From an uncultured Muribaculaceae bacterium (lineage in GTDB: Bacteria > Bacteroidota > Bacteroidia > Bacteroidales > Muribaculaceae), in assembly GCA_947629175.1 (NCBI GenBank), contig CANRCT010000012.1, positions 1 to 64,000 of the forward strand: DNA of 64,000 nt. Reading direction: 5' to 3'. The notes beneath the pieces were generated by a model that saw only the letters and a program-made list of their open reading frames with translations, did not search any database and was not told the origin of the DNA. Shown here one piece after another: positions 1 to 26,629 of this stretch; within the stretch, counting starts at the first letter, position 1; each line of letters opens with the position of its first letter. A program made the translations under genes and the position numbers.

Positions 1-2917
1 TCATATTCTCAACATAGGAAAATTTTGGTTCATCTGTAAGTTCCAACCAGACAATTTGTGGTTTATTGAAATCGTCCCAATAGCTGATGCTATCCTGAGT
101 TTCAAACCATTTGTTAGAGGTCTTTTTCCGTGCTTTCTCGTCACCTGCTCCAACGCGAATGCGATGGCCTGCTATTTCTATGAATTGTCCCGTCTGAGCA
201 AGCTTTTGATAGCAGTAATCAGCAAGATAATTGTCGGCTACCCAATCCAAACCTGCTTCACGGAGCATAGGCTCGGCAAAAGAGAGCAGATGGGACTTGA
301 CGGATGGATATTGTTCGATGTCGTAATTTCTCGCCGGGAAAGTGGCGATTAGCCATAGGTTCGCCCAGTCGTAGCCGTAACGCTTGATGTCACGGCCACG
401 AAGAATGGGTCGAATTAATTCCTCAGTACGTTGCCGTTCTTCCGATGTTTGACATTTACTCAGGATCTCATCTCTTTTTTCGGTGGAAATGATGAACGCT
501 TCATTGTATCCTGTAAGAACACCACGATATATGTTTATATCCCAATCCTTGAGAGGCACACCTACGGCTTCGATTTTGCGTTTGATGCTCTGCTCGATGG
601 GCGAGAGGATTACCCACGAGTCGGAGGTGGCGAAATCGGTGGCAACGGCGTTGTGCCGCACGAAATCGCTCAAATTTTTGAGGATATCTTTGTGCTGTTT
701 ACTCCCGGAGACTGCTTGTGTCTCGTGACGATTGCCATCCTTTGAGAATAGTAGTATATTGGTGTCGACCGTTGCGCTGTCGAACACTTGGATGCCTCCG
801 AAATCGAGCAACAGTTTGGGGTTAGTTTTCTTAGCAAGAAACTGACGTAGGTCTTTGCCATATCCGGCTCTCATCCATTTGTTGGATGTGATGTAGCACA
901 GATGACCTCCATTCTTCAGCATACGCCACCCTTGCTCATAGAATAGGCAATATATATCGCCGGTGCGGGCAAATGATTCAAACTTACACCCTTCATAGAG
1001 CTTCGCAAGTGAGCCACCATTGCCTTGAAGCTGAATGTAAGGAGGATTACCGATTACAATGTCGAACCCCCCATTTTCAAATACATCGGTAAACCATGTG
1101 TGCCAAAGGAAGAAATCCGAGTTCTCCGATGGATCCGTTCCTGTGGGAAGTATAATCTCTTTATCAAGTAGCTGACGACGCACATTATTGATTATATCGT
1201 TGAATAGTCGGGCGCGTTTGGCATGATCGGATGTTCCATAATAAGATTTTAAATCCGACACAAGAATCTCGCGATCCGGATCATCTGAGTCAAACAATGA
1301 CGCATGTGAATTCACTTTGGTCATATCGGCAAGGGTTATGCCATTATAGCTTTCCAACAACGAGTTGCCCTGCATGATTTTGAAATGAAGGTTAGGAAGT
1401 GGTTGTGGCTCTTTCTCATCCACCACCATTGCCAGCCAGAAGCGAAGACGTGCAATATCAACCGCACCTTTCTCAATGTCAACGCCATAAATACTCTTCT
1501 CCATGATATGACGTTTGATAAGCGTACGGTCTGAGTCGGGTTTCAACGCGATGAATATACGTGAAAGAAGATTGACGAGACCCATAGGGAATGCCCCAGA
1601 GCCAATGGCCGGGTCACAAATCTTAACATCGACAAGCTTGCGCAGCAGTTTCATCCTTTGTTCAGGAGTCAGAATCTCAGGATCAATTGTTTCGATAAAC
1701 TTTCGGATAAGGGGATGTGCTTTCTTCTCGTAGCCATTATTGAGATAGGCTATGAGTGATTCGCGGCACATATAATCAACGATTTCTTTCGGAGTATAGA
1801 ATGCCCCTTTGTCTTTATTGTCTTCAAGAAGGTTCTCAAAGATACGTCCCAGCATCTCAGGGTCAATGCCGATTTCTGCGTCTTCTGTGTCGTTTTCATC
1901 GATAGTGAAGTTATAGCTATCGAGAAAGCCGAATAATTTTTCGAAATACGAGGCAGGAAAAACGCATCTCTCCGGGTCAACATCATCTTTTTCAAAAAGA
2001 CCACCGTTAAGATATGGTATATTCTCGCTGCCAGGGAGATCTCTTGATGAGGAGGGACGCAGCTCCGGCTTGGTATTCAGCAAATCAAAAAACAATGGCT
2101 CCAGAACACCATCAAGGAAATTATCTTTTTTATCGGAGTTGACGAAAAGGTCGTGCATATAGTTCTTGTTGCCGGCCATCCAACCTTTACGCTGGAGGAA
2201 GTAGAGGAACACAATGCGGCCAAACATCTTCTTGATATAGTCACGTACATGTTTTTCATCGGAGTTAAATGTGTCAACAAACAATTTGCTTTCCTCCGAT
2301 TGCTTTTTCTCAACCCATTTACCTTTCTCCTTTACATACCGTTTGCCTGTGATGTACTGCACAAAATCAGCATAAAGCTCGCGGTATTCATCGAAGAATT
2401 GTTTGCTCAGTGCATCTACCGAGAATGCATCCCGGAGGTTTGTAAAGTCGATTCCTTTTGTCTGTAATGTCAAGAATCGTTCAGCGGGAGTATGATATTG
2501 CATTGTAGGGTCTCCGAAAACGTAAGAATAGCGCTTCGGTGTTGTTGCGGCATCCTTTATGTCGCAAATAAACGAAAGACGCCAGTTCTCGGAATCATCA
2601 TATACCACAAGGGCGGCATCAAATTCTCCATAGGACGCATTAATGAATTTCTTTACGAGATTGCGCAACCCCACACGACGGTTTGTTACACTACCATCAA
2701 GTACATCATATCTGAACAAGCCAATTGAATAACCATCAGGCGTGTCTATTGAACCGAGAAAATATCCCTGCAACTTTTCTTCCGGGTCTGAAATCGGCTG
2801 AGGATTGACTCGCAGACGATTTGCGTGGAAGAAATTAATCAGCAATTCCTGCCATGTCTCAGCGGAGAACGGCGATTTGAATATTTCCTTTAGCGTTGTC
2901 TTATTATATGATGCCAT
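1..2917 (-). CDS. Eco57I/type IIG (PglX-like) adenine-specific DNA methyltransferase, 3' end beyond window edge
   Basis: Manual translation of the minus strand from ATG at 2917 (MASYNKTTLKEIFKSPFSAETWQELLINFFHANRL...) stays open to the window edge. Contains LEDNKDKGAFYTPKEIVDYM, DPAIGSGAFPMGL (SAM motif I) and IVIGNPPYIQLQG (NPPY catalytic motif). Absent from the ORF track because no stop lies inside the window. Confidence 0.93.
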   Translation of the reverse strand, partial: MASYNKTTLKEIFKSPFSAETWQELLINFFHANRLRVNPQPISDPEEKLQGYFLGSIDTPDGYSIGLFRYDVLDGSVTNRRVGLRNLVKKFINASYGEFDAALVVYDDSENWRLSFICDIKDAATTPKRYSYVFGDPTMQYHTPAERFLTLQTKGIDFTNLRDAFSVDALSKQFFDEYRELYADFVQYITGKRYVKEKGKWVEKKQSEESKLFVDTFNSDEKHVRDYIKKMFGRIVFLYFLQRKGWMAGNKNYMHDLFVNSDKKDNFLDGVLEPLFFDLLNTKPELRPSSSRDLPGSENIPYLNGGLFEKDDVDPERCVFPASYFEKLFGFLDSYNFTIDENDTEDAEIGIDPEMLGRIFENLLEDNKDKGAFYTPKEIVDYMCRESLIAYLNNGYEKKAHPLIRKFIETIDPEILTPEQRMKLLRKLVDVKICDPAIGSGAFPMGLVNLLSRIFIALKPDSDRTLIKRHIMEKSIYGVDIEKGAVDIARLRFWLAMVVDEKEPQPLPNLHFKIMQGNSLLESYNGITLADMTKVNSHASLFDSDDPDREILVSDLKSYYGTSDHAKRARLFNDIINNVRRQLLDKEIILPTGTDPSENSDFFLWHTWFTDVFENGGFDIVIGNPPYIQLQGNGGSLAKLYEGCKFESFARTGDIYCLFYEQGWRMLKNGGHLCYITSNKWMRAGYGKDLRQFLAKKTNPKLLLDFGGIQVFDSATVDTNILLFSKDGNRHETQAVSGSKQHKDILKNLSDFVRHNAVATDFATSDSWVILSPIEQSIKRKIEAVGVPLKDWDINIYRGVLTGYNEAFIISTEKRDEILSKCQTSEERQRTEELIRPILRGRDIKRYGYDWANLWLIATFPARNYDIEQYPSVKSHLLSFAEPMLREAGLDWVADNYLADYCYQKLAQTGQFIEIAGHRIRVGAGDEKARKKTSNKWFETQDSISYWDDFNKPQIVWLELTDEPKFSYVENM

Positions 2918-2925
2918 GATGTGGG

Positions 2926-5900
2926 TCAGATGAATGTTTCGGAGATTATGATTTTAGGGTCACTTACATCCTTTTTAACGGAATCGCTTGTTATATTAGT
3001 GTGATATTCATCAACTAATTTACTTATAGCCTTTTGTAACTTGTACTCAGATTCACGGATTTTAATTCGGTCATTTTTGTATTCCTGCGATATTGTTTTC
3101 AACTCCCTCGGAAGCTGGGAATATGTGCCCTGACCAAGATAACCACGCAGAATTTTCACATTAGCGGTTATGATAGGGTCGGTAAACACCTGTAAAAGCG
3201 TTCTTAGGAATTTATCTGCCACTTGAGCGGTTTTGTCGAGGGTCGCGACATCCACCTTTGCCTCATCGTGAACCTCGATGACAGTCTGACGGTATTTTTC
3301 CAATGCTCGATTTACCTGACTGTAATGCGAATCGTCTTCTGGGATGGGAGTCGCTTGCTCATCCGGTCGTGCCTTTAGATAACCTACTGCTGTCAGGAAG
3401 TCAATAGGCTCAGGATTCCCTGCACCAACAAGATAAAATTCGGTTTTCACCTCCGAGGATACAAACACGATGGTTTTACCATGGTGTTTGCCGGTATCAT
3501 GACCGACGCGGCTTTTTAGTGGTAACGCTTTGATTTTGTGATAGAGGTCACGGTCATTGTTGTATAAGTCTCGCAGCTCACGGAGTAATGCGATTTTCTT
3601 GTCAATGCTATCTCTCACGTTGCTGTCAAACAGTTTGAACTCTTTTACAATCTCCTCCCTCGAATAAATCTGGGCATCCTCTCCATAAGCCGAGTGAAAA
3701 CTCTGTAGCTTAATCAGCGCGTTCTTGTAAAGCTGAATTTCCTTATCCCCCTGCTGAGATGGATAGAACATGAAGTTGTAGATGTTAGGAGCAACAGATC
3801 CAATTCGGTTTACACGTCCAATACGCTGCATCAGACGAGAGGCATTCCAAGGAGAGTCATAGTTCACAATCACATTAGAACGATGTAGATTCACGCCTTC
3901 AGCCAAAACATCAGAAGTAAGAATGATGTTAAAATCATTCTTCTGCTCTTCCGCCGACACATTCGCGTCGAAATTGGCTTTGACCTGACCTTTCTTTTTA
4001 TTGCGGTTTGATGCGGTGATCAACAACACATCGTCTCTCCCCATAGTATTATGAAGATAATCGTACAGGAATTTAATCGTATCCACACTCTCGGAGAATA
4101 CCACCAGTTTCCCTGTCGGGTTTATGTCTGACGATAGGAGAGTGTTTTGCAGACTATTGATAAACAGTTCCAGTTTAGGGTCATCGGAGACTTGTGACCA
4201 TTCATCGTTGAGTTTTTTGAGTATGTTCCTATCCTTCTTAAGCATTTCAATAAACTCGGGCTGGAAATCGGAAGCATGATAGAGAATGTCATCTTTGCTA
4301 TATCCTTTTTCCATCGCAAGTTCAAGAATCTCGTCAAGTTCCATATCCTTTGCCTGTAACGCTTTCACGTTTAGCTCCGGGGCAATGATGACCTTATCCT
4401 GCTCAAACATCTTTATCATGTCAGATGTGATGCGCAGTAAAGTAGCCAACGACTTCTTGAAAGCATGGAAACTGCTCTCAAGTCGTTTTACCATGTGAAC
4501 CTTGTATATACCTGCAAGACTCTGGCTTATTTGTTTTGCTCGGGGATAACGGTCTCTAAACTCCGGATTGAGAAATTCTATGGCTCGATAACGTGCATAG
4601 CCAACATGCTCAAGATTCTCTTCATCAGTAAGTGCCGACAGCGTTGCATAGAATTTTTCACTTAGAGAATCGCCTAATTGGTAGGTCAGTTCATTCGGAG
4701 GAAGTATATGTGGGAAAATTATACCTTGATCTTCAAGGTCATGGCAATAATCCGGATCGTTGAGGATATTATTGCGGGTGCGACGGATTGTCACCTTGTC
4801 GATTACCTCATCGCGTATTGACGCATATATCTTTTCAACATCAGCAGTAACATCCCGTCTGGCGCGTTCCCTCATTAGCTTCTTGTAATCCGATATTTTG
4901 GGAACAAAGAATGCTTTCAGATTTGGAACGCCATCAATAGTACATTGCTGACTGTCTTGAAACAAAAGCAACTGATTCAAGAGGTCTTCCGGTCTGTTGT
5001 TTAGGGGCGTGGCAGAAAGAAGCATCACTTTTTTACGTGATGATTTCAACAATCCTTGATTAGAGCAAGGTGCTTTACATATTTTTTGCAGCTCATCATA
5101 TTTTCCGGAGAGGTCTGACCGGAATCCGTGAGCCTCATCAACGATGATAAGGTCAAACTCCTCTTTGTCTTTGTATTGGTCTTTGCCCTCCAGGATTTTC
5201 TTTAAGCTGCCATTCGTTATGAACTGGGCTTTCTTGCTGATGCCAAATAATTTGAATGTACTACGCCAGTTTTCTTCAAGTGCCGGAGGGTAAATAACAA
5301 GTATATTGGTGTTTTTACCATTAGCTTCGATGAATCTTTTGGCAATCATTGTGGCAATCATCGTTTTGCCAAGACCTACGACATCTGAAAGGAATAATCC
5401 GTTATGCTGAAGTAGCATTTGATAACCTTGGATTACCGCATCTTTCTGATATTTCAGTTCTTTTACTCCGTCGGGAAGCTGTATAGTAAAATCATCTTCT
5501 ACTTGATCACCGAAAGCCTCAATAAGAACCTTGATATACAATTCATATGGTGTCGGTTGATAACCGAGATAGGTCTGTTTTTTATATGCGCTTATATCAT
5601 CGGCTGTTATGGCTATTGCCTCATTCCAAAGCATATCAAATTGCTCATGGCAGTAGTTTACATCATCGAAATCCTTCATTGCCACGTTCAACTCGTACCG
5701 TGGAGCGACAGTTATTCCTAATCCGGATTCCGAGATATTAGACGAACCCATAATCACCCAACCGTCTGAGTTGGGAGTATGTGTTTGGGGCAAACACAGA
5801 TAAAACTTGGCATGGAGGTTTTTTGACGGATGAATCCTCATTTGCAGTCGCCCGGAAACAAGATCTTCGCACATTTGCAATATACCTCTTTCAACCTCAG

Positions 5901-6207
5901 GTAAATAATGGGCGTTTACAATATCTTCCGCAAAGTCAGTACTAAATATTTCACGAGCCTTATCCTCATTCTCCAACATCAATAATGCCTTGTTATGCTT
6001 CCTAAAGATATTATCAATGTTGATGCCTACCAGTATTTTTATCTCTGGCACATCGCCAAGTTCTTCTCTAAGTTTGAAGTAACCTGATGACCGAAAGAAT
6101 CCGACTACTGCAAGGAATCGGTCAAAAGAAGCCATTTCTGACGCTATACCTTTTAATTTAAGGAATAGGGTATTAGATGGTGTATTATTGAAGAACTTAG
6201 TGCTCAT
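2926..6207 (-). CDS. PLD-like (HKD) nuclease domain fused to SNF2/DEAH helicase
   Basis: N-terminal LHAKFYL...GSSNISESGLG (PLD HxK-type motif), then GLGKTMIA (Walker A), DEAH (motif II), SATPLNN (motif III), DVLAEGVNLHRSNVIVNYDSPWNASRLMQRIGRVNRIG (motifs V/VI). 8-nt gap to the methyltransferase. Confidence 0.93.
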   Translation of the reverse strand: MSTKFFNNTPSNTLFLKLKGIASEMASFDRFLAVVGFFRSSGYFKLREELGDVPEIKILVGINIDNIFRKHNKALLMLENEDKAREIFSTDFAEDIVNAHYLPEVERGILQMCEDLVSGRLQMRIHPSKNLHAKFYLCLPQTHTPNSDGWVIMGSSNISESGLGITVAPRYELNVAMKDFDDVNYCHEQFDMLWNEAIAITADDISAYKKQTYLGYQPTPYELYIKVLIEAFGDQVEDDFTIQLPDGVKELKYQKDAVIQGYQMLLQHNGLFLSDVVGLGKTMIATMIAKRFIEANGKNTNILVIYPPALEENWRSTFKLFGISKKAQFITNGSLKKILEGKDQYKDKEEFDLIIVDEAHGFRSDLSGKYDELQKICKAPCSNQGLLKSSRKKVMLLSATPLNNRPEDLLNQLLLFQDSQQCTIDGVPNLKAFFVPKISDYKKLMRERARRDVTADVEKIYASIRDEVIDKVTIRRTRNNILNDPDYCHDLEDQGIIFPHILPPNELTYQLGDSLSEKFYATLSALTDEENLEHVGYARYRAIEFLNPEFRDRYPRAKQISQSLAGIYKVHMVKRLESSFHAFKKSLATLLRITSDMIKMFEQDKVIIAPELNVKALQAKDMELDEILELAMEKGYSKDDILYHASDFQPEFIEMLKKDRNILKKLNDEWSQVSDDPKLELFINSLQNTLLSSDINPTGKLVVFSESVDTIKFLYDYLHNTMGRDDVLLITASNRNKKKGQVKANFDANVSAEEQKNDFNIILTSDVLAEGVNLHRSNVIVNYDSPWNASRLMQRIGRVNRIGSVAPNIYNFMFYPSQQGDKEIQLYKNALIKLQSFHSAYGEDAQIYSREEIVKEFKLFDSNVRDSIDKKIALLRELRDLYNNDRDLYHKIKALPLKSRVGHDTGKHHGKTIVFVSSEVKTEFYLVGAGNPEPIDFLTAVGYLKARPDEQATPIPEDDSHYSQVNRALEKYRQTVIEVHDEAKVDVATLDKTAQVADKFLRTLLQVFTDPIITANVKILRGYLGQGTYSQLPRELKTISQEYKNDRIKIRESEYKLQKAISKLVDEYHTNITSDSVKKDVSDPKIIISETFI

Positions 6208-6447
6208 ATAAAAATAATAAAACTCCGGGGCAGTTATCTGAGGGCTGACCGAGCCTGTAACGACTGCTTAGGAGCTTCAATAATGGTTGGTTTTGGTGGC
6301 ATCGCTGCCTTTGGTGTTAAACCGTTCCGGTCATATTCAGAATTTTGAGGTTACTATATTGCAAAATTAGCGATTATTTCTGAGATAGCAATCGAATATG
6401 CTAAGAAACATAAGGCTGAGAGCTGATTAGAAGAGGTAAAAAGTGAA

Positions 6448-6481
6448 AACGCCGCCGAGGTATGTTTCCCTCGGTGGCGTT
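6448..6481 (-). terminator. Rho-independent terminator of the mob operon (minus strand)
   Basis: AACGCCGCCGAGG (6448-6460) / CCTCGGTGGCGTT (6469-6481), 13-bp stem with one G-U. On the minus strand it is followed by TTCACTTTTT. Sits just after the relaxase stop. Confidence 0.8.
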
Positions 6482-6485
6482 GTGG

Positions 6486-7694
6486 TTAGTGTAGTTTGGG
6501 CCCTTGTCGGCGGCGTTTGGCTTTTTGTTCTTCACGATAGCGGTGAAGTGCCTCTTCTATGGTAAGTCCGGGATGGCGGCTCAGCCACAGTTTGAAATCA
6601 TCAGGCAAAGCACCTCCATTAGCAAAACCTTCTTGCGTCTGCGAGGCTCCTGAGGATGGAACTTGGGATAACCGAGTGCCATAGTTTTGCGACTGGGATG
6701 CAGTTTGCCCGTCTAAGTCCGGATTCGATGAATAGACTCCCGGAGTCATGCGCTGTGGGTTGAATTGTATCCACACAGTAGGCATAGCTCCCTGGCATCC
6801 GTCAACTCGGACAGCTTTCCCCGCAACATAATCATTAATCTGTTGTGTCGTAAACCGCACGCCTTTGTATGATGCGATAGGCACGATGGAGCCATCTGCA
6901 TACATCCATTGAGACTGAGGATGTAACGGTTTGTTGTTGGCAAGATGCTTGGAAATATTGCCCAGACTGAATCGCCGGTCAATCTTTGATGCGGCGAAAC
7001 GTTTGCCTTTTCGGGTGTACCATAGACCCTGCAATTCGCCGGTGCCGCGCTTATATTTGTATTCTATGCCAACTCCAGCCGCTTTTAAGCGGGTCTCGAA
7101 TTGCTCGAAAGTATGGACGGATTTATCCTTCCATACCGAGTCAACGGCGTTGAAAATCTCATATCGTATCTTTTCCGTGCCACGCAGTTTATTGACATTA
7201 GTCTGCCGCTTGTCCTCGGAAATGTGCAGTCCGTATTCCTTTGTCAAGTCAAGACAGACAGCCCTGTTGCGGCTGAAATCATTTTTATCGGAAATGGTTT
7301 CGGCGTGGTTATCTATTCGGCTGAACACGATATGACAGTGTGGATAATCCTTGTCGAGATGGCGGACAATGATGTATGGAGTATCCACGATGCCCATTTT
7401 CTTCATATATTTTTGGGCAATCTCTACCATAATCCGGTCATCAACTTTATCCTTGTCGTTGGCATGGAAGTTCAGGGAAATATGTCCTACCGGATTTTTC
7501 AAGTCCGGATTCAAGGCGAGATTATCCTCAAAAGAAGCGATAATTCCACTCCGCCCCTCAATAGTAGATACATCTTTATAGTCGATAAGACGCCATTCTT
7601 TGCATGGAGAACCGTCGGGATTGTCCTTCTTTCTGCGGGTGACGTAATCGACGCAACCACCAAAACTGCCGCCTTTTGTTATCTTGCCCATCAT
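6486..7694 (-). CDS. Relaxase/mobilization nuclease (MOBP-like, PF03432-type)
   Basis: MMGKITKGGSFGGCVDYVTRRKK... HISLNFHANDKD... PHCHIVFSRIDNHAETISD (HxH). Start at 7694 preferred over the longer ORF (7751) because it gives an ATGA overlap with the MobC stop at 7691. Confidence 0.9.
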   Translation of the reverse strand: MMGKITKGGSFGGCVDYVTRRKKDNPDGSPCKEWRLIDYKDVSTIEGRSGIIASFEDNLALNPDLKNPVGHISLNFHANDKDKVDDRIMVEIAQKYMKKMGIVDTPYIIVRHLDKDYPHCHIVFSRIDNHAETISDKNDFSRNRAVCLDLTKEYGLHISEDKRQTNVNKLRGTEKIRYEIFNAVDSVWKDKSVHTFEQFETRLKAAGVGIEYKYKRGTGELQGLWYTRKGKRFAASKIDRRFSLGNISKHLANNKPLHPQSQWMYADGSIVPIASYKGVRFTTQQINDYVAGKAVRVDGCQGAMPTVWIQFNPQRMTPGVYSSNPDLDGQTASQSQNYGTRLSQVPSSGASQTQEGFANGGALPDDFKLWLSRHPGLTIEEALHRYREEQKAKRRRQGPKLH

Positions 7695-8086
7695 ACGCTG
7701 TCGGGTGTATTTCGATAGATTTTTATCAGTGAAAGAACAAAATCCTTGCACTGAATTATCTCTCTGTATGTACGGACAATCTGGTCATCCGAGGCACCAC
7801 TTTTTAGAATGGCACCAACAAATTTTGCCGTGCGGTTGAGATTTTCGGCGATTCCCTGAAGGTCGCGGATTGCCTTGACATCTCTTGGCGTGAGCCTTTC
7901 CACGACTTTGCAATGCAGTGCCGACTGCCGGATATATTCCGAGCGGTTGAGCCCTGCCATGAGAGCTTTGTCCATCATTACCTGATACTGGTCGATGTCG
8001 AATTTCACCGGCACCATGATGGACTTTCTTTCATCAGCCGGGAGTTTGGGACGTCCTTTAGCGGGACGTAAATTGGATTTCTTCAT
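7691..8086 (-). CDS. MobC-like plasmid mobilization relaxosome protein
   Basis: 131 aa (KFDIDQYQVMMDKALMAGLNRSEYIRQSALHCKVVERLT...IAENLNRTAKFVGAI), typical MobC RHH-like N-terminus and C-terminus; directly upstream of and overlapping the relaxase. Confidence 0.85.
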   Translation of the reverse strand: MKKSNLRPAKGRPKLPADERKSIMVPVKFDIDQYQVMMDKALMAGLNRSEYIRQSALHCKVVERLTPRDVKAIRDLQGIAENLNRTAKFVGAILKSGASDDQIVRTYREIIQCKDFVLSLIKIYRNTPDSV

Positions 8087-8122
8087 TGGAAATTCTGTTT
8101 GAGGTTTGTGACCATCGGGAGC

Positions 8123-8223
8123 GGAGGGGAGCGAGTCGTTTGAGGATTACTTGTAATACGAAAACATAAACTCGCTCCCTCCAATTCCGAACCCTATCGA
8201 TAGTTTCGAGATGCACGAAACTA
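8123..8223. other. Candidate oriT of element 1 (two inverted repeats upstream of mobC)
   Basis: IR1 GGAGGGGAGCGAGT (8123-8136) / ACTCGCTCCCTCC (8170-8182); IR2 perfect 8-bp TAGTTTCG (8201-8208) / CGAAACTA (8216-8223) with a 7-nt loop. Located between mobC and the DUF3408 gene. Confidence 0.5.
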
Positions 8224-8314
8224 CGAGGACTATTTAGCGGTCAAATAGGTTAATATCTCCATGTGAATATTCATGTGTATGAATATGTGTATGTATATAG
8301 TTGCAATCACGCAT

Positions 8315-8821
8315 TCAGAGTTTGCGCCAGATTTCGATGTCCGGGGAGTATGCCCGCAGGTGGTCGTCGAGGACGGCGTTGATGTAGCTGGCGACGGTTG
8401 TGCCACGCTCGCCGAGGATGCGGGCGATGCGTTCAAGTTGCTCCCAGATGTCGTCCTCGATATTGACCGGGTGACGGTTCACCAGCTTTGCCGGAGTAAG
8501 GAATGTAGCCTTGAACTCGGCGAAGTCCGATTTGCGCTGCTGCTTGCCGATGCGCTGTTGCTTCGGCGGCTCGGTCGTTTCGATTACGGATGTTGCTTCG
8601 GTTGCCGTCTGCTCGTTGCCGAACAGATTTTCATTGGCAACGGCGTTGACAGTGGCGGTGCTGTTAACAGCATTGTCGCTGTTTACTGCGGGATTGAGGT
8701 TGGTAGAGTTATCGGGTTGCATAATAATTTGGGGGTTAGAGGTTGATACTTGGATTTCGGGTGCATCGGTCAACTCTGTTGACTTGGATGCGGTGGTTGA
8801 AGGTGTTTTTGTGGTTTTCAT
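8315..8821 (-). CDS. DUF3408 domain protein (mobile-element accessory)
   Basis: C-terminal RHPVNIEDDIWEQLERIARILGERGTTVASYINAVLDDHLRAYSPDIEIWRKL. ATGA overlap with the upstream gene. Confidence 0.75.
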   Translation of the reverse strand: MKTTKTPSTTASKSTELTDAPEIQVSTSNPQIIMQPDNSTNLNPAVNSDNAVNSTATVNAVANENLFGNEQTATEATSVIETTEPPKQQRIGKQQRKSDFAEFKATFLTPAKLVNRHPVNIEDDIWEQLERIARILGERGTTVASYINAVLDDHLRAYSPDIEIWRKL

Positions 8822-9900
8822 TGTTTTGGTGGTGTTGAGGTTTTGTTGATTGCATCAGTATCCGGGTTATACCGTTCAACAGACACGAGGGTGAGTTGCA
8901 GGTCATCAATTAGTTTCTGCAACATCGGGTTACGGCGTATCATAGTTTGCAGCACGGCTTGGTCAGGCTCGATTTGCAGGAGGTAGTCTGCTATGTCAAG
9001 TCCCGCTTTTCGCTCGTCGTCGGTGGCAACTTCTTCAAGGTAGTTGAAGATACTTGCCTCGATACCGAGATTGCAAAGCAAACTCAGTTTCTGTCGCCAT
9101 TGGTCGGTCGCGCCTATATCGGGATACAGGATTACCTGACGGCCTCGGAGAACACAGAGTGCGTCGGAATTAAAGCAACCGTTTTTACCGCCGGATGCGA
9201 GCCAAACATATTCGGGCAGATAATAAGCTGCCACAAGTGCCGTCTTTTCGCTCTCGACAATGGCAACCGGCTTGCCCCTGTTCATCGGCAACAGGTGTTC
9301 GCCGAAAAAGCACTGACGCAGATTGAACTCGGGCAACTTCAACAGCGAATGAACCCATGTGACATGGTTGAACGGGTGCTTGACACGTTTGCCGCTGTCT
9401 GCATCATAGAGCATGACTTTCCCGGTACGAACACTGCCATTGATGTCGGTCTGCCAGAATACGCATGACCCCGGCCAGTGCTTCGATGTACCTACGCGAT
9501 AATCTTTCATCAGCCTAAGGGCTTCCTCGGCTCCGAACTTGGAGTGGAGGAACAGATAGAGGTTGTTCTTCTCATATCCGTGCAGAGTCTGTGCAACAGT
9601 CTCTGCCGCGATGAACGATGTCGGCTTTCGCTGCTCGGTCTGCTTGGCTCGCCATGCTGACGGAGCTGTGAAATCAGAGTGCAAGGGCTTAGCCTCCGGA
9701 TTACGCTCAAAATATTCCTTCGGTGTCAGGTGGTAGCCGCAGCTCTGCTCATGGTCGCATCTGCCAACATCATCAGGAAACGAGATTTGTTTCTCAGTGT
9801 CGATATATCGGCTGAAGCAACGCTTCTTATGACAGGCAGGGCAACAGTATCGGCTTCCAACTCCCTTATAGGGCTGGAGAATGAATCGGTGTGCGTTCAT
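8818..9900 (-). CDS. DUF6371-like / zinc-finger plus TOPRIM primase-like protein
   Basis: N-terminal Zn-binding YCCPACHKKRCFSRY...CDHEQSCGYH; TOPRIM-like VAIVESEKTALVAAYYL and ILYPDIGATDQW. Confidence 0.75.
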   Translation of the reverse strand: MNAHRFILQPYKGVGSRYCCPACHKKRCFSRYIDTEKQISFPDDVGRCDHEQSCGYHLTPKEYFERNPEAKPLHSDFTAPSAWRAKQTEQRKPTSFIAAETVAQTLHGYEKNNLYLFLHSKFGAEEALRLMKDYRVGTSKHWPGSCVFWQTDINGSVRTGKVMLYDADSGKRVKHPFNHVTWVHSLLKLPEFNLRQCFFGEHLLPMNRGKPVAIVESEKTALVAAYYLPEYVWLASGGKNGCFNSDALCVLRGRQVILYPDIGATDQWRQKLSLLCNLGIEASIFNYLEEVATDDERKAGLDIADYLLQIEPDQAVLQTMIRRNPMLQKLIDDLQLTLVSVERYNPDTDAINKTSTPPKQ

Positions 9901-9984
9901 AGATTCTCAAAGATTTTGCTTGCATTTTCTGCGTAACCCGCATTTTGTCGGTTCAAAATGCGGAAAATGCAGAAAGCGCAGGTG

Positions 9985-11346
9985 TCAGAGTTTGGAATAA
10001 TGTCCATGTTTCTCACGCTGGAAATAGGTGCCTAATGAGACTGACCGTTTGAGAAAGTCCTGAAACGTGCGTCCCGGCATACCGTTCTCTTTTGCCACGG
10101 CTATCCCTTCCTCGGTCGTGAAACAGTCGGGCAGAGCGGCGATTATGGCTCTCTGCTGCTCGGTCAGCGACATTTCGCTGATGATGCCATGCACTTTTCT
10201 GGCGGTCGCCTTGAAATAATCCACAAGCGATATGGCGTTCTCGACGGAAAGGATGTCTATGTTCGTTCTGTCGGCTTCTCCGCAGGCCCACCGAGCCATC
10301 TGCAATATCAGGCAGAAACGTATGGCATGGAAATCGAACTTGTTGTAAACGCCTTTCAGCGCATCACAGTCCTCGCGGTTACATTCCTCGGTGTTCTGAC
10401 GCTGCCATTCGTAGAGCCTTGCTTTCGCGTCCGGCGCAAAGGGTAGGATATTGGCTATGACATTGCCGTCGGAATCTGTTTCGTATGGAATAGCGACGAG
10501 CCTTTCTATTATCTCCGCCCATGCCGCTTCTATGTCGAAAGTCGGCTCCTTGTCGCTCCACGGCTGTTTGTCCTGATTATGGGGCATGACGAACAGCAGA
10601 CGGTCGATAAAACCGTTTGATGAGCGGCTGCCCTGTGCCAATTCGTTGAGTATGCCGTTCTGGATAGTTCCTACCACCGAGATAAAGGGGCGGCTGATAT
10701 AGACCGAGTTCTTTACCCCCTTGCGGTCGGAAAACGACGGATTGGCATTGAACAGCTTTAGCCAGTATTCTTCATCGGAGCCTTTGTTGTATCGGTTGAA
10801 GCTCTTGAACCAGCCCGCAAGTTCGTCATTCCACATGGCTATCCCTCTCAGATTCTGTGAGTGGATTAGCAGCATGGCTTCGGGAGTGGCATCGGAAATC
10901 AGGAACCGTTTGCATACCGGTGCAACGGGATGAGGCTCGCTGCGTTCCTTCATGGGCAGTTCGCGCTGACGCTCGTATTCCTCACACGCCTTGATGTAGG
11001 CACGGGTCGCGGCACCGTCCAATTCGGAGAATGGTCGTATGGCAAAGTTCAGCGGATGCGACTTGCACGCTCCCGGTCTGCCGACAAGAGCCATGAACAG
11101 AATCGCGCTCTCATCCCATTTCCCTTTGAGCCGGGCGAAATGGGTGTTGCCGATACCGAGACCGACAGCCACAAGCATAGCCCCTGCAAGATAATCCACC
11201 GGATATCCGTAACAGTCGTTAGCCTCCCTGACGATTCTCTGAATTTTCATCGGCAATGCGCCAAGCGGAAAATCCCCGCCCCGGACTTTTACACTCATAT
11301 CAACGGCCTTGCCGAGTACGAGCATCGGGTCAACAGATTTCTCCAT
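9985..11346 (-). CDS. DUF3987 (primase/helicase-like) protein
   Basis: LPMKIQRIVREANDCYGYPVDYLAGAMLVAVG...FMALVGRPGACKSHPL...NDELAGWFKSFNRY...; clearly homologous to the element-2 protein at 29265-30608. Confidence 0.85.
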   Translation of the reverse strand: MEKSVDPMLVLGKAVDMSVKVRGGDFPLGALPMKIQRIVREANDCYGYPVDYLAGAMLVAVGLGIGNTHFARLKGKWDESAILFMALVGRPGACKSHPLNFAIRPFSELDGAATRAYIKACEEYERQRELPMKERSEPHPVAPVCKRFLISDATPEAMLLIHSQNLRGIAMWNDELAGWFKSFNRYNKGSDEEYWLKLFNANPSFSDRKGVKNSVYISRPFISVVGTIQNGILNELAQGSRSSNGFIDRLLFVMPHNQDKQPWSDKEPTFDIEAAWAEIIERLVAIPYETDSDGNVIANILPFAPDAKARLYEWQRQNTEECNREDCDALKGVYNKFDFHAIRFCLILQMARWACGEADRTNIDILSVENAISLVDYFKATARKVHGIISEMSLTEQQRAIIAALPDCFTTEEGIAVAKENGMPGRTFQDFLKRSVSLGTYFQREKHGHYSKL

Positions 11347-21259: not shown

Positions 21260-24200
21260 GGATGTATCATCTCCACGTCTACAATGCCGTGGACGGCGCC
21301 GACGTGTACACCTCCATAGCGCAGCTGCTGCAGGACGCCAAGGAGCATCGCGAAACGATGAACCTGTACGTGCGGCTCACTTGCCCGAATATGGCCGTAG
21401 CGGCAGTCAAGGATAACCGTTCGGCGAATGAATCGGACTGGAACTGCTTGATCGTAAAGGATGTTACTCCTTTGGTCAACGGTGAGGAGAATCCAGATAT
21501 CCCCTCGCTCCCGCTGGTGTTCAAGCAGGGCATAGGAAAATTCTCGTCGAGCTTTTTCCAATATTCCAATACGGTCGAGAAATACTATAAATATCCCCGT
21601 CCGGGCGAATATATCCAGGAGATGACCTTCAAGGTAAAGATTGATGCCAACGGCAACCTGACCGGCGACCTGACTAATTTCGACGCGCGTTACAAATCTT
21701 TCGCTGCTTCGGCCGAAACGCATTTCGGTTATAATCCGGAACTTCGCCCCGGCGAGCCTTGGTTCAAGAAGCATGTCGGCAAGATTACTCATATGGAAGA
21801 TCTTCAGAAAGCCGAGGAAGCTGTGCTTTCCGCTGAGCAACTCGACAGGCTTGTGACTGTGGAGGGCGTGAAGATCGCAGCCGTGGAGGACCCTGCCGCG
21901 CAGCCCGAGGCTCAGAGTGACGGCGGCGGCATCGCCGCGCTGGCCGACGAGCCGGCACAGAAGACCTACGTGGCCAAGATGGCCAAGGACGTGCGTCTGG
22001 AGTGGAACATCTTCCCGTCGACCGACGAAAAGACCGTGGACCACACCATCATCGACAATATCGGCGATGACGCCACCTATACCCTCACCGGACTGGTGCG
22101 CGCCGACGCCGACGGCGGCCACTTTATCGAGGTGCTCGACCTCGACCCGGTGTTCGGCAAGAAGCTCGCAGTCTGTGACCATGAGCATCATGCCACCTAT
22201 TATGACCAGGATATCGACGACGTGAAGCTCTCGCCCGAGCAGATAGGCACAGTAGTGGAGCTGACCGGAATGAAGCTTGCCGGCACCGAAGCCGACGGCT
22301 ACACCACGGTGACACGCCAGCCAGTGAAGCTCAATTTCAGCAGTCTCGCCTCGAAGACCGACGGCTGGAACAATCAGGCCAAGGAAGCCGTGGAGGGTAA
22401 TCTGCCCGTCAAACTGATGGGTACGCTGGCCGGCGCCGATGACGGTTCGGCTTACACGCTCAACGTGCTGACCTACGACAATCTCGCTTTCGACAAAGAG
22501 ACCGAGGAGGGTCTGGAACTGACATTCGACGGGGTGACTTTCGACCCGGAGCGCACGGAGTTCTACTCCGTAGGCAAGCTCGGCTACGAGGCTCCGGAAG
22601 GCACGCACGTCTACTACACGATGGTCGACCCCGATGAAGCCACAAAGGATCTTGGCGAGGACGCCACCGACGAGGACAAGGCTGCCGCTATCACGGCGGC
22701 TCTTGAAAGCCGCGCCGAGACGCTGCTCGACAATGCCGAGGGCGTACGGGCCGACCGCACTGTATGGGTGCGCCTGACAGCGTGCACCCCCGGCGAAGCC
22801 CCGATCAAGGCCCGCGTGTTTGAGGTGAAGAAGGGCTCGACCGACGTCAACAAGATCGCCGAAGTGGTAGCCGCGCAGCCCGAGGGAGGCAAGGGCGTAT
22901 ACCACGTGCGTTCGCCCTGGCTCGTGACCGCTAAAGGGGCCGACCGCGTAATCGTGACTGACGGTACGATACATGCCGCTCTGGAGACGAACGCACAGAG
23001 CCCCGCGCTTCCCGCGGCCGGCAGCCATCTGGCCGACTTCGCCGTAGCGAAAGGATCCACGGCGATGCATCCCGACTATACGTATTCGTTCGATCTGGCC
23101 GGCAATGATCTGCAGCGCATAGTGATCGAGACTCCCGCCGAGCCGGTGAAGGCTCCCGCCGTGGAGAATGTGGCTGCTGTAAGCGCCGACGCCCATAAGG
23201 GTCATCTCTTGGGATTTACCGACGTGAAGCTCTCCGGCAATAAGACGGTCGGATTCAGTGTTACAGGCGTCGTGACATCAGGTGACGCCACCGCCGGCCT
23301 GAAGCTGAACAATGTGCTCGGCATATCGCTCGACCAGATGCTCGACGACAACGCCGAGGCAAAGTATCGTCTGACAGGCTACCTGATGCCGGCCGCAGAT
23401 GGAGGTCTGGAGTTCTGGCCCGACGGAGTGATACGCCGCACGAAAATAGCCACAGTGCCGGTCATCACGCTCAGCGCCGATAAGAGCCTCCAGCCCGCTA
23501 AAGCCACCATCAGCTGCGCCGACGAGAGCCTGACGATAGAATACTCCATCGATGGCGGCAAGACCTGGATCCAGTATGCCGGCGAGATATCCCTGACCAA
23601 GAGCACTGAGCTCAAAGCCCGCGCCACGAAGGAGTATCTTGACAACAGCGACGAGGCTACGGCCACGTTCACGCTGCTCTACACCTCGGCCGCTCCCGCC
23701 GCCTCGTTTGAGGAGTCGGACGGCCTGACGAAGGTGACCCTCGGCAGCTCGGCCGAAGGCGCCGCAGCCGGCAGCTACAGGATCTACTATACGACCGACG
23801 GCAGCGAGCCCACCGAGGAGTCGACGCTCTACGCCGGCAAGCCGATCGAAGTGACGGCCCCCGACGTAGTGGTCAAGGCCATACTCATAGAAAACGCCGC
23901 CGAGGCAGTGGCGAGCGCCGTCAAGGAGTGGCCGGTGGCATTCACTCCGGCTCTGAGCGGCGACGTCACCATCACTGTCAGGGAGGAGGCGGGCAAGACC
24001 GTCATCACCATCAGCGGCCCCGGCACGATATCCTATACGCTCGACGGCGGCAAGACCTACGTGGAGTATAAGGATCCGATAGTCATAACCAACGACAGCC
24101 AGACCGAACTCCAGGGCACCATACGTGCTTTCGCCCAGGAGGACGGCAAACGTCCGGGAGCAATCAAGGAGGAATCTTACAAAGTGAGCGGTATCGGCAG

Positions 24201-24375
24201 CCTGTCGGCCGACAGCGCTGCAGGCGTGAGCGTTGAGGGCAATACGATCGTGGCGCCCGAAGGCTCGATGGTATTCGACATCACGGGTCGCCGCGTCGGT
24301 CTGACCGGACTGCGCCGCGGCATCTACATCGTACGCCTTCCCGACGGCAAGGCCGTGAAGGTAAGCGTACGCTGA
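21244..24375 (+). CDS. Large secreted protein, C-terminal part: chitobiase-like repeats and T9SS type A-like sorting domain
   Basis: No signal peptide of its own. YYTTDGSEPTEESTLYAGKPIEV and IEYSIDGGKTWIQYAGEI repeats; C-terminal MVFDITGRRVGLTGLRRGIYIVRLPDGKAVKVSVR. Confidence 0.75.
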   Translation: MLYSVRMYHLHVYNAVDGADVYTSIAQLLQDAKEHRETMNLYVRLTCPNMAVAAVKDNRSANESDWNCLIVKDVTPLVNGEENPDIPSLPLVFKQGIGKFSSSFFQYSNTVEKYYKYPRPGEYIQEMTFKVKIDANGNLTGDLTNFDARYKSFAASAETHFGYNPELRPGEPWFKKHVGKITHMEDLQKAEEAVLSAEQLDRLVTVEGVKIAAVEDPAAQPEAQSDGGGIAALADEPAQKTYVAKMAKDVRLEWNIFPSTDEKTVDHTIIDNIGDDATYTLTGLVRADADGGHFIEVLDLDPVFGKKLAVCDHEHHATYYDQDIDDVKLSPEQIGTVVELTGMKLAGTEADGYTTVTRQPVKLNFSSLASKTDGWNNQAKEAVEGNLPVKLMGTLAGADDGSAYTLNVLTYDNLAFDKETEEGLELTFDGVTFDPERTEFYSVGKLGYEAPEGTHVYYTMVDPDEATKDLGEDATDEDKAAAITAALESRAETLLDNAEGVRADRTVWVRLTACTPGEAPIKARVFEVKKGSTDVNKIAEVVAAQPEGGKGVYHVRSPWLVTAKGADRVIVTDGTIHAALETNAQSPALPAAGSHLADFAVAKGSTAMHPDYTYSFDLAGNDLQRIVIETPAEPVKAPAVENVAAVSADAHKGHLLGFTDVKLSGNKTVGFSVTGVVTSGDATAGLKLNNVLGISLDQMLDDNAEAKYRLTGYLMPAADGGLEFWPDGVIRRTKIATVPVITLSADKSLQPAKATISCADESLTIEYSIDGGKTWIQYAGEISLTKSTELKARATKEYLDNSDEATATFTLLYTSAAPAASFEESDGLTKVTLGSSAEGAAAGSYRIYYTTDGSEPTEESTLYAGKPIEVTAPDVVVKAILIENAAEAVASAVKEWPVAFTPALSGDVTITVREEAGKTVITISGPGTISYTLDGGKTYVEYKDPIVITNDSQTELQGTIRAFAQEDGKRPGAIKEESYKVSGIGSLSADSAAGVSVEGNTIVAPEGSMVFDITGRRVGLTGLRRGIYIVRLPDGKAVKVSVR

Positions 24376-24405
24376 TATCGGAAATTAACATTACCTGTTT
24401 TTGTG

Positions 24406-24438
24406 TCGGGGGCCTCGCCGTGGTGGCGGAGCCCCCGA
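24406..24438 (+). terminator. Terminator downstream of the secreted protein gene
   Basis: TCGGGGGCCTCGCC..GGCGGAGCCCCCGA hairpin followed by TCTTTT. Confidence 0.75.
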
Positions 24439-24692
24439 TCTTTTAGTGCGCGCCGGCGCAATGCTATAATACCTAAAATAGCTACCATAGCTATCGCCCC
24501 GTTCAGCCGATCAAATGCATCTCTCAGATAATTAGGCTTATAGGATGAAACAAATACGTTTTCCATAAAATCCGGGGGCTATTTTACTGCGTTTTCCTAT
24601 GAATCTGGTCGTCGAAAAACTGCGTTTTCCTGAAACGGGCGATGTGGGGAGGACCGGAAGGCGGGGACAAGACATAAGCATATAAAGTAAGA

Positions 24693-24727
24693 CAGCGGCC
24701 GATAATCAAGGAGATTACCGGCTGCTG
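24693..24727 (-). terminator. Likely ancestral tRNA-Leu terminator, now stranded beside attL
   Basis: CAGCGGCCGATAATC (24693-24707) / GATTACCGGCTGCTG (24713-24727). On the minus strand followed by TCTTACTTTAT. Sits 3 bp from the 17-bp att repeat. Confidence 0.6.
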
Positions 24728-24730
24728 CCC

Positions 24731-24747
24731 GTACCCGGACCCGGGAT
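24731..24747. repeat. attL (17-bp duplicate of tRNA-Leu 3' end)
   Basis: GTACCCGGACCCGGGAT identical to 34559-34575. Confidence 0.92.
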
Positions 24748-24859
24748 ATTGATATGAAAACGCATGAAAATGAATAGAACCATTCGCAATGGTTATCAGA
24801 TAGTTATATGTGATTGGCCTTCTATTCATTTATAGCCGTTTTCGATATTTTTTGCCAAG

Positions 24860-24878
24860 TAGTACACTTTTAGTACAC
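24860..24878 (+). repeat. Putative integrase arm-type site, left end
   Basis: TAGTACACTTTTAGTACAC; 18/19 identity, same orientation, to 34490-34508. Confidence 0.7.
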
Positions 24879-24971
24879 CACAGTTGTTATAGAACTGTTA
24901 ATGACTCTTTAATGCAAATTTACGAATTACTTTTGAATGTGTAAATTTGTGGAAAAGAAAAGTTTACACTT

Positions 24972-26219
24972 ATGGCAAATATCAAGACAAAGAACAAACA
25001 AAACCCTAAACTACAGCAGTCCGTACTGAGCGACGGACGGGCCAGCCTTTATCTTGAGTTTTACCTCGGGCGAACCGAAACTCCCGTCGTTGATGATGAC
25101 GGCAACCCGGTGTATTATACCGAAGGTGCGATGAAAGGCAAACAAAAATACAAAATCAAGCATGACCGCCGAAAAGAAAATCTGAACCTATACATCTGGA
25201 TTGCACCCCGTACTCAACAGGAGCGCATCCAGAACAAGAATACGTTGGCTCTTGCCGAGAAAATCCGATTTGAGAGAGAACAGCGTTTGCTTGAGGACCG
25301 GGAAGGCTACCGATTGAAGAAAGAGCGTATCGCCAACTTCCACGACTTCTTTCAAGAATACATAGACACATACACCAAAGCAGACAAGCGCATGATTGAA
25401 ATGGCACATCGGCGTTTCCGTGCTTTTCTCAGCGAAACTCCGGCATATATGATGTATGACCGAATTATAAGACCTCAGCAACTGACTAAGGAAATGATGC
25501 TTTCCTTTGTGGAGTATCTGAAAGCTCACGGCAAAGGTGAAGGCCCACAATCAGTATTCCAGCGTTTCAAGAAAGTCATAGCTTATGCCGTTGAAAAGGA
25601 AATCTTGTCGAAGAACCCTTGCATGGGTATTACCATCAAGGTTGACGAAAAGACTTTGAAGAAAGAAATTCTTTCTCCCGAAGAGATAGAAAGATTGATG
25701 GCAACACATTACGCCAATGAAAATCCTGTTATACAACGAGCATTTCTCTTTAGCTTATTCTGCGGTTTACGTTGGTGTGATGTAAGCGATATAACTTTCC
25801 GAAATATTGATTACGCCAACAAACTTCTGATTTTTGAGCAGAACAAAACACGCGGGCACAGTTCGGCGAGTGGTGTGGTAATCCCTCTTAACGATGATAT
25901 TCTATCTCTTGTAGGATACCCGGCGACAGAGGAAGAACGCGATAGTCTAATATTTCCGCTACCTTCTCATACCGCTTGCCTAAAGGCTGTGAAAAGATGG
26001 GTTAAAAGAGCTGGCATTAGTAAGCATATCACATGGCACTGCGCCCGACATAGTTTCGGGGTTAATTTGCTTAATCGCGGAGCGAATATAAAGACGGTAT
26101 CAACCCTTTTAGGGCATAGCAGCTTACGGCATACGGAAAAATACACACGAGCTAATGACGACCTTATGGTGAAGGCTATAAACAGCCTCGGCAGTGTCAG
26201 CTATGCAAGCCCCGAATAA
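24972..26219 (+). CDS. Tyrosine recombinase/integrase (element 2, intact)
   Basis: FSLFCGLRWCDVSDIT...ITWHCARHSFGVNLLNRGANIKTVSTLLGHSSLRHTEKYTRAND: R..HxxR..H..Y set present. Confidence 0.95.
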   Translation: MANIKTKNKQNPKLQQSVLSDGRASLYLEFYLGRTETPVVDDDGNPVYYTEGAMKGKQKYKIKHDRRKENLNLYIWIAPRTQQERIQNKNTLALAEKIRFEREQRLLEDREGYRLKKERIANFHDFFQEYIDTYTKADKRMIEMAHRRFRAFLSETPAYMMYDRIIRPQQLTKEMMLSFVEYLKAHGKGEGPQSVFQRFKKVIAYAVEKEILSKNPCMGITIKVDEKTLKKEILSPEEIERLMATHYANENPVIQRAFLFSLFCGLRWCDVSDITFRNIDYANKLLIFEQNKTRGHSSASGVVIPLNDDILSLVGYPATEEERDSLIFPLPSHTACLKAVKRWVKRAGISKHITWHCARHSFGVNLLNRGANIKTVSTLLGHSSLRHTEKYTRANDDLMVKAINSLGSVSYASPE

Positions 26220-26470
26220 CTTTCCACGGGATTGAGTGTTATATGGTTGTAGATGTGAGCTAAAAAGCTTAACTTTGCATACGGAATCGCAGTCAAAATA
26301 ATTTTGATTGTGGATTTTAGTGGTCGGACATCGGGAGGGATACCCGGTGTCCTTTTCTATCCCGAAGCATACTTGCAATCAAGATTGCAAGATTTATCGT
26401 CTTTACAACTCTATATATCAGAAATTTGTTGTATCTTTGTAATCTAATAACAAACACAAGGAGTACAGAC

Positions 26471-26629
26471 ATGGCACGACCTATCAAAGAAACCCCAGTG
26501 TTAAGGGGCAAGGACGCTGAAAATTTTGCCAGAAGAATGGCAAATCCCGCTCCTGTCAGCAAGTCTGAAAAGGAAGCGGCAAGAAAGGCGTATGAGGCGT
26601 TCAAAGCCATAAGCACATTCCCTATGTAA
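26471..26629 (+). CDS. Small putative antitoxin (52 aa) upstream of GNAT
   Basis: MARPIKETPVLRGKDAENFARRMANPAPVSKSEKEAARKAYEAFKAISTFPM; 2 nt from the start of the GNAT gene. Confidence 0.65.
   Translation: MARPIKETPVLRGKDAENFARRMANPAPVSKSEKEAARKAYEAFKAISTFPM

What the first reader, a model, noticed from the sequence alone, without database searches (positions are those of the whole stretch)
1..6207. Two-gene PLD-SNF2 helicase / Eco57I-type methyltransferase module as cargo of a mobilizable element
The helicase (N-terminal HKD nuclease motif, SNF2 motor) and a large NPPY methyltransferase are 8 nt apart on one strand, and sit beside the mob/replication module of element 1. The combination resembles DISARM (SNF2 plus MTase plus PLD), type ISP and BREX PglX systems. 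No DrmA/DrmB, PglZ or recognisable PD-(D/E)XK domain is visible within the window, so the PLD domain may be the only nuclease. A minimal modification-linked anti-phage system is a reasonable hypothesis. Genes beyond the left edge are unknown.
Basis: partly seen in the sequence, partly recalled or inferred. Interest (0 to 1): 0.75.

Follow-up and report, generated by a model that had tools for sequence, protein, structure and literature searches.

The report
Mobile restriction system with swappable specificity
A gut bacterium's mobile element carries a two-gene, restriction-modification-like system whose DNA-reading part is a swappable cassette, and in close relatives a dedicated recombinase can apparently flip alternative cassettes into place, so that the system could change which DNA sequence it marks.

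Summary
The two genes are real. A 1093-aa PLD(HKD)-SNF2 protein (2926-6207, -) lies 8 nt upstream of an Eco57I-class adenine methyltransferase (2-2917, -), as cargo behind the relaxase of a mobilizable element. The methyltransferase is cut off by the contig edge after 972 aa; its 93%-identical relative has 1073. The pair recurs in 67 of 76 Bacteroidales loci, without DISARM or BREX partners.

The half of the methyltransferase after its catalytic NPPY motif is an exchangeable specificity cassette. In 40 of 42 close pairs, DNA homology stops within 9 nt of the NPPY codons. In 7 loci, including the window's 96%-identical sister, the gene faces inverted silent copies of its C-terminus next to an Mpi-family invertase. 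Of 49 loci tested, exact inverted repeats occur only in the five with the invertase. In-silico inversion keeps full-length frames.

Published data fit. Prevotella intermedia 17F has the same layout, and its three motifs (GGYGAB, GGNYAG, CCNYAG) are what single inversions at two joints would give.

Best reading: a restriction-modification-like defence system with switchable specificity, a new variant of a known kind. Inversion and restriction are inferred, not shown. No invertase was found in the window's own assembly.

The parts
2926..6207 (-). PLD(HKD)-SNF2 helicase-nuclease, 1093 aa
   Evidence: ORF; Pfam PLDc_2, ResIII, SNF2-rel, Helicase_C; PADLOC C3a139 'HKD+Snf2' 8e-45; AlphaFold pLDDT 82.7, Foldseek hits RapA, ZorD, SauUSI
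5626..5892 (-). PLD/HKD nuclease domain (aa 106-194); H132, K134, GSSN157 conserved
3799..5454 (-). SF2/SNF2 motor (aa 252-803; VGLGKT, DEAH, QRIGRVNR)
2..2917 (-). Eco57I-class N6-adenine DNA methyltransferase, 972 aa seen, C-terminus beyond the contig edge
   Evidence: full-length relative of 1073 aa in L032
1037..1048 (-). NPPY catalytic motif codons (aa 624-627): junction at which C-terminal cassettes are exchanged between loci
   Evidence: 40 of 42 close pairs lose DNA homology within -1..+9 nt of it
564..672 (-). Segment corresponding to inverted-repeat block A of L032 (SDFV...SPIEQSIKRKIEA); no second copy found in this assembly
   Evidence: L032 block A is a 109-nt exact inverted repeat; position by collinear mapping; own-genome search
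361..415 (-). Segment corresponding to block B (RPILRGRDIKRYGYDWA), start of TRD1
   Evidence: 55-nt exact inverted repeat in L032
51..77 (-). Segment corresponding to block C (DDFxKPxIV), TRD1/TRD2 junction
   Evidence: 27-nt exact inverted repeat in L032; pattern scan finds one copy in G000, two opposed copies in G146
1..50 (-). First residues of a TRD2 allele not seen elsewhere (VWLELTDEPKFSYVENM...), cut by the contig edge
6486..8086 (-). Mobilization genes (relaxase and NikA/MbpA-like) of the carrying element

Best explanation
This is a mobile, restriction-modification-like defence system. The Eco57I-class methyltransferase marks host DNA at an asymmetric m6A site and supplies target recognition. 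The PLD-SNF2 protein, an ATP-driven motor with a single-HKD nuclease, attacks DNA whose sites lack the mark. The specificity is modular. Everything after the methyltransferase's NPPY motif, including two half-TRDs, is exchanged between lineages as a cassette. In a subset of loci, including the window's nearest relative, an Mpi-family serine invertase inverts DNA between in-frame repeats. This swaps TRD1+TRD2 (blocks A/B or NPPY) or TRD2 alone (block C) with silent inverted copies and so changes the recognised sequence without changing the motor or nuclease. Shown by sequence: the gene pair, the motif conservation, the cassette exchange, the inverted repeats, the recombinase and the preserved frames. 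Inferred: active inversion, altered specificity, nuclease action, phage defence, and the presence of the switch in this particular strain.
For: Pair conserved in 67 of 76 helicase loci with at least 600 nt downstream: 55 adjacent, 12 with one gene between; helicase in 33 of 148 related genomes. Conserved HKD, SF2 and NPPY motifs. Conservation of the methyltransferase falls from about 0.6-0.8 over most of its N-terminal half to about 0.1-0.3 after residue 720. In 40 of 42 pairs with helicase >=88% and core >=85% identity, DNA homology ends -1..+9 nt from the last NPPY base. Conversely, C-termini 75-77% alike occur on cores 33-40% alike (L036/L061, L053/L124). Seven loci carry inverted silent C-termini and a serine recombinase: L032, L036, L039, L060, L127, L140, L191; RefSeq names the L191 recombinase 'master DNA invertase Mpi family'. 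Exact inverted repeats >=18 nt between the gene and the 9 kb downstream occur in 5 of 49 loci, exactly the five with the recombinase, plus 118 and 64 nt in L140. In-silico inversion gives full-length ORFs (1025/1064, 1082/1076, 1093, 999/1053, 1107 aa). The same TRD alleles are expressed in one species and silent in another. PMC5608340: P. intermedia 17F has a SNF2/RAD54 helicase, a 1117-aa methyltransferase and a 305-aa gene assigned to the same enzyme type on the complementary strand; its methylome shows GGYGAB, GGNYAG and CCNYAG, while the cloned gene alone gives GGYGAB.
Against: No sequencing reads or paired assemblies in opposite orientation were available, so inversion was not observed. 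The window's own assembly (99.89% complete) holds no such recombinase (with two positive controls) and no second block C. Most related loci (44 of 49) have neither, so in them cassette exchange must occur by another route. Restriction and phage defence are untested here. The P. intermedia sequence could not be fetched, so its membership in this family rests on published annotation and layout, and splitting its motifs into halves is my inference; the R. microfusus motifs do not split as cleanly. The methyltransferase model is poor (pTM 0.38).
Confidence: 0.68

Rival explanations
1. The window carries a plain, non-switching two-gene restriction-modification-like system. The hypervariable C-terminus only reflects long-term horizontal exchange of specificity domains, as in many restriction systems, and the contig edge is an ordinary assembly break.
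For: No recombinase or silent cassette in the own assembly; 44 of 49 comparable loci lack both.
Against: The nearest relative (96% helicase, 86% DNA over 6.4 kb) has the full switch exactly where the window ends; the contig breaks inside the same segment.
Confidence: 0.5
2. The pair is a degraded or minimal member of DISARM or BREX that has lost its other genes.
For: Helicase similar to DrmD (150 bits), methyltransferase similar to PglX (81 bits); Foldseek places the methyltransferase nearest PglX/BrxX.
Against: All scores lie far below the curated cut-offs (150 of 610; 81 of 500). The two-gene layout is intact across dozens of loci without DrmA/B, PglZ or BrxC neighbours; MZB and DUF499 are absent genome-wide and the only PglZ hit is PorX-like.
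Confidence: 0.05
3. The methyltransferase is a self-sufficient Type IIG enzyme and the helicase is an auxiliary protein, so cleavage comes from the methyltransferase's own N-terminus.
For: Best PADLOC models are REase_MTase_IIG (475 bits); Pin17FIII was catalogued as Type IIG (PMC5608340); one related methyltransferase with a TRD switch has no helicase beside it (L156).
Against: No PD-(D/E)XK family match. A D119-x-K121 pair looks like a nuclease motif but is absent in divergent members (L076, L127, L102), whereas the HKD residues of the partner are conserved.
Confidence: 0.15
4. The pair acts mainly as an epigenetic regulator (phasevarion): switching methylation to alter gene expression is the selected function, and restriction is secondary.
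For: Switchable m6A specificity is the hallmark of phasevarions (PMC7394358).
Against: The ATP motor and nuclease are co-conserved with the methyltransferase in 67 of 76 loci and keep their catalytic residues; the cassettes ride on mobile elements.
Confidence: 0.15

Closest known systems
Pin17FIII locus of Prevotella intermedia 17F (PMC5608340)
   Same: Upstream SNF2/RAD54 helicase, 1117-aa Type IIG-assigned methyltransferase, 305-aa gene of the same assignment on the opposite strand; three m6A motifs, only one reproduced by the cloned gene
   Different: Catalogued as a two-enzyme Type IIG system; the inverted gene was not recognised as a silent cassette and no recombinase or inversion was proposed in the passages read; its sequence could not be fetched here
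Phase-variable Type I systems (hsdS shufflons: B. fragilis Shufflon BB, S. pneumoniae SpnIII; PMC3090145, PMC4190663)
   Same: Inverted repeats exchange TRDs between one expressed and several silent copies
   Different: There the swap is in a separate HsdS subunit, in B. fragilis next to a tyrosine integrase; here it lies inside a single-chain methyltransferase, with an Mpi-family serine recombinase and a PLD-SNF2 partner
BREX-1 with split PglX (L. rhamnosus; PMC7513527)
   Same: [quoted passage not shown] heterogeneity linked to phase variation
   Different: Needs PglZ, BrxC and others; different partner genes and integrase
SauUSI and PADLOC candidate C3a139 'HKD+Snf2'
   Same: PLD nuclease fused to an SF2/SNF2 motor
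   Different: SauUSI is a stand-alone Type IV enzyme without a cognate methyltransferase (own knowledge); C3a139 names only the protein architecture
Type-2 BREX-related (BR) systems (PMC12839542)
   Same: HKD-SNF2 helicase plus N6-methyltransferase
   Different: Defined by DUF499 and DUF3780, not seen next to this pair; DUF499 is absent from the genome

Membership tests
DISARM | DrmD helicase at curated score | tested here: not met
   NF038317 150 bits against a cut-off of 610
DISARM | DrmB (MZB/DUF1998) and DrmA | tested here: not met
   PF09369 absent from G000, control rings in 8 genomes; no conserved neighbour besides the pair. DrmA itself was not searched genome-wide
BREX | PglX at curated score | tested here: not met
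   NF033452 80.7 bits against 500
BREX | PglZ phosphatase-type protein | tested here: not met
   Only PglZ hit in G000 is a receiver-domain PorX-like protein on another contig
Type-2 BREX-related (BR) | DUF499 ATPase | tested here: not met
   PF04465 absent from G000, but the control rang in only 1 of 14 genomes
Type ISP | Nuclease, helicase, methyltransferase and TRD in one polypeptide | tested here: not met
   Two ORFs
Type IIG | Nuclease domain in the methyltransferase chain | tested here: inconclusive
   PADLOC IIG models hit at 475 bits, but no conserved nuclease motif in the N-terminus
Restriction-modification-like system (broad) | Methyltransferase and nuclease encoded together with conserved catalytic residues | tested here: met
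Restriction-modification-like system (broad) | Cleavage of unmodified DNA, protection of self | not testable with these tools
   needs biochemistry or phage plating
Specificity-switching (invertible TRD) systems | Expressed and inverted silent TRD copies flanked by inverted repeats, with a recombinase gene | tested here: met
   Met in sister loci L032, L036, L039, L060, L127, L140, L191
Specificity-switching (invertible TRD) systems | Same features in the window's own genome | tested here: inconclusive
   Contig ends inside the segment; no recombinase or second block C in the assembly
Specificity-switching (invertible TRD) systems | Observed inversion in a population | not testable with these tools
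   no reads or paired assemblies available

The most novel reading that the evidence does not exclude
A distinct class of specificity shufflon outside Type I systems: a PLD-SNF2/Eco57I restriction system whose single-chain methyltransferase is re-assembled at its own catalytic NPPY codons (or at conserved TRD joints) by a dedicated Mpi-family serine invertase. It would give combinatorial motifs (two half-TRDs, for example GG/CC x GAB/YAG) and, in some loci (L060, L191), switch linked accessory genes together with specificity.
Probability: 0.6. Interest if true: 0.75.

Novelty: new variant of a known kind. Interest (0 to 1): 0.64.

Why it matters
Specificity switching by inversion is best known for Type I systems. 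Here the same logic appears in a single-chain methyltransferase paired with a PLD-SNF2 nuclease and spread on mobile elements through gut and oral Bacteroidales. It offers a direct explanation for published orphan methylation motifs in P. intermedia 17F and predicts a fourth one (CCYGAB). It also suggests that the catalytic motif of adenine methyltransferases is a natural splice point for engineering new specificities.

Tried and rejected
Recovering the missing methyltransferase C-terminus from other contigs of G000: DNA, protein and block-C pattern searches found only the window itself. A blastn self-comparison for inverted repeats was replaced by an exact k-mer scan, after blastn missed the 118-nt repeat of L140. 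A first breakpoint scan was biased by requiring the alignment to reach NPPY; it was redone without that filter. Near-identical strains in opposite orientation were sought in IMG/VR: one hit was the same genome as L039, another had lost the methyltransferase, and two exact-pattern scans found nothing. A D119-x-K121 nuclease motif in the methyltransferase N-terminus was rejected because divergent members lack it. DISARM, BREX and DUF499-type BR were rejected by cut-offs and genome-wide searches. CP019303 is not held.
Full report
Observation. Window base 1 is the first base of contig C12 of a 79-contig, 99.89% complete genome. The methyltransferase is therefore cut by the assembly at 972 aa; the relative L032 (Muribaculaceae Isolate-013; helicase 96%, methyltransferase 93%) has 1073 aa. 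Pfam finds PLDc_2, ResIII/SNF2 and Helicase_C in the first and Eco57I in the second. Next to them lie a relaxase, a NikA/MbpA-like protein, replication-type proteins and a tyrosine integrase.

The pair is a real unit. Relatives came from 148 related genomes (33 with the helicase at E <= 1e-30) and from GTDB contigs (55 loci). The methyltransferase follows the helicase directly in 55 of 76 loci and after one gene in 12 more. The inserted gene is often a YhcG/DUF1016 PD-(D/E)XK protein. No other gene is conserved. Relaxases of differing identity (30-40%) or integrases flank the pair in several loci, which fits a travelling cargo. HKD residues H132, K134 and N157 and all SF2 motifs are conserved in nearly all of 28 helicases. 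The helicase model (pLDDT 82.7) is nearest RapA, Chd1, ZorD and SauUSI. The methyltransferase model (poor, pTM 0.38) is nearest PglX/BrxX and CamA.

The specificity half is a cassette. Conservation of the methyltransferase is about 0.6-0.8 over most of its N-terminal half and 0.1-0.3 after residue 720. Among 42 locus pairs with helicase >=88% and methyltransferase core >=85% identity, DNA homology ends between -1 and +9 nt of the last base of the NPPY codons in 40. The two exceptions keep the whole C-terminus. The reverse also occurs: L053/L124 share 77% in the C-terminus with 43% in the helicase, and L036/L061 share 75% with 33% in the core. Some Prevotella pairs regain homology in the last ~100 nt. 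So the region from NPPY onward travels as a unit.

An invertible version exists. In L032 the methyltransferase is followed by an inverted 277-aa copy of its C-terminus and a 201-aa serine recombinase. The recombinase has a Resolvase domain and matches proteins that RefSeq names 'master DNA invertase Mpi family'. The arms share exact blocks of 109, 55 and 27 nt, separated by diverged DNA. The same layout occurs in L036 (B. pyogenes), L039 (P. canoris), L060, L127 (two silent cassettes), L140 (118- and 64-nt exact blocks) and L191 (P. nigrescens plasmid record, two silent cassettes and an ATP-binding gene between them). In L060, L127 and L191 the repeats lie on the GFDIVIGNPPY codons, the same joint at which lineages differ. 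An exact-repeat scan of 49 loci finds inverted repeats in five only, precisely the five with the recombinase; by chance that coincidence is about 1 in 1.9 million. Inversion in silico leaves full-length frames in L032, L036, L060, L127, L191 and L140.

TRD alleles. Between blocks B and C lies TRD1, after block C TRD2. TRD1 'ATFP...NKWFETQDSISYW' is expressed in the window, L032 and L036 but silent in L039. TRD1 'NTHNGVKG' is expressed in L039 and L075 and silent in L032. TRD2 'WKRIGSILRF' is expressed in L032 and L039 and silent in L036. TRD2 'YPNMTKY' is expressed in L036 and L061 and silent in L039 and L075. L075 also seems to hold a second, direct TRD2 start after the inverted one. In L039 the expressed gene is split into two frames, so that copy may be off or carry a sequence error.

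Published data. In P. intermedia 17F (PMC5608340) the methyltransferase Pin17FIII (chromosome II 22231-25584) is followed by Pin17FORF9595 on the complementary strand (25608-26525), with a SNF2/RAD54 helicase upstream. The methylome has GGYGAB, GGNYAG and CCNYAG. Cloned Pin17FIII gives GGYGAB only; the second gene alone gives nothing; the other motifs were left without a gene. If GG/CC is read by TRD1 and GAB/YAG by TRD2 (my inference), the sequenced state is (GG,GAB). One inversion at block C gives (GG,YAG) = GGNYAG, and one at block A gives (CC,YAG) = CCNYAG. The fourth combination, CCYGAB, needs two inversions and was not reported.

The window itself. Its contig stops about 50 nt past block C, in a TRD2 allele not found elsewhere. 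Its genome shows no such recombinase (the search rings in two control genomes) and no second block C (control rings twice). Either this strain has a fixed version, or the switch lies in the unassembled gap. I put the chance of a switch here near one half.

Mechanism. Most likely the methyltransferase recognises and marks a short asymmetric site, and the PLD-SNF2 protein uses ATP and the HKD site against DNA lacking the mark. No second nuclease motif is conserved: a D119-x-K121 pair in the methyltransferase N-terminus is lost in divergent members. Restriction is inferred from architecture and not shown.

Known systems. Scores for DrmD, PglX, DpdE and the PLD anti-phage family are far below curated cut-offs. 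MZB and DUF499 are absent genome-wide and the only PglZ protein is PorX-like. PADLOC knows the helicase architecture only as candidate C3a139 'HKD+Snf2'. In the open literature searched, inversion of TRDs is described for hsdS, and a split PglX with an integrase for L. rhamnosus BREX (PMC3090145, PMC7394358, PMC7513527). No description of this combination was found; subscription papers and preprints were not searched.

Noticed in passing
L060:15388-17455: Passengers in the invertible segment: a 111-aa protein that looks GIY-YIG-like by eye (no Pfam hit) follows the expressed C-terminus, and a DUF488 protein plus a 271-aa protein follow the silent one, so inversion could switch accessory genes too.
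   Followed up: partly
L191:10210-11469: An ATP-binding protein (PADLOC PDC-S01 type, 390 bits) lies between the two silent methyltransferase cassettes of P. nigrescens.
   Followed up: partly
L156 (in reversed orientation 5230-10587): A methyltransferase without a neighbouring PLD-SNF2 helicase also carries inverted TRD cassettes and an Mpi-type recombinase, so the switch is not confined to this system.
   Followed up: partly
L053:13292-14407 and similar loci: In several rumen Prevotella loci a YhcG/DUF1016 PD-(D/E)XK gene (PDC-S02) is inserted between helicase and methyltransferase.
   Followed up: partly
L063, L073, L123: Helicases about 99% identical in Leyella and Parabacteroides with unrelated methyltransferase C-termini: recent transfer with only the specificity changed. 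L123's methyltransferase is split.
   Followed up: partly
L074/L095 and L189: Decayed copies: the helicase is split in two frames in L074/L095, and the methyltransferase is missing behind an intact B. pyogenes-like helicase in L189.
   Followed up: no
L061:6375-6851: A lone inverted TRD2 fragment lies 3 kb upstream of the helicase instead of behind the methyltransferase.
   Followed up: no
L139:7511-8119: A second Mpi-type recombinase in the B. pyogenes genome, not next to a methyltransferase; its target is unknown.
   Followed up: no
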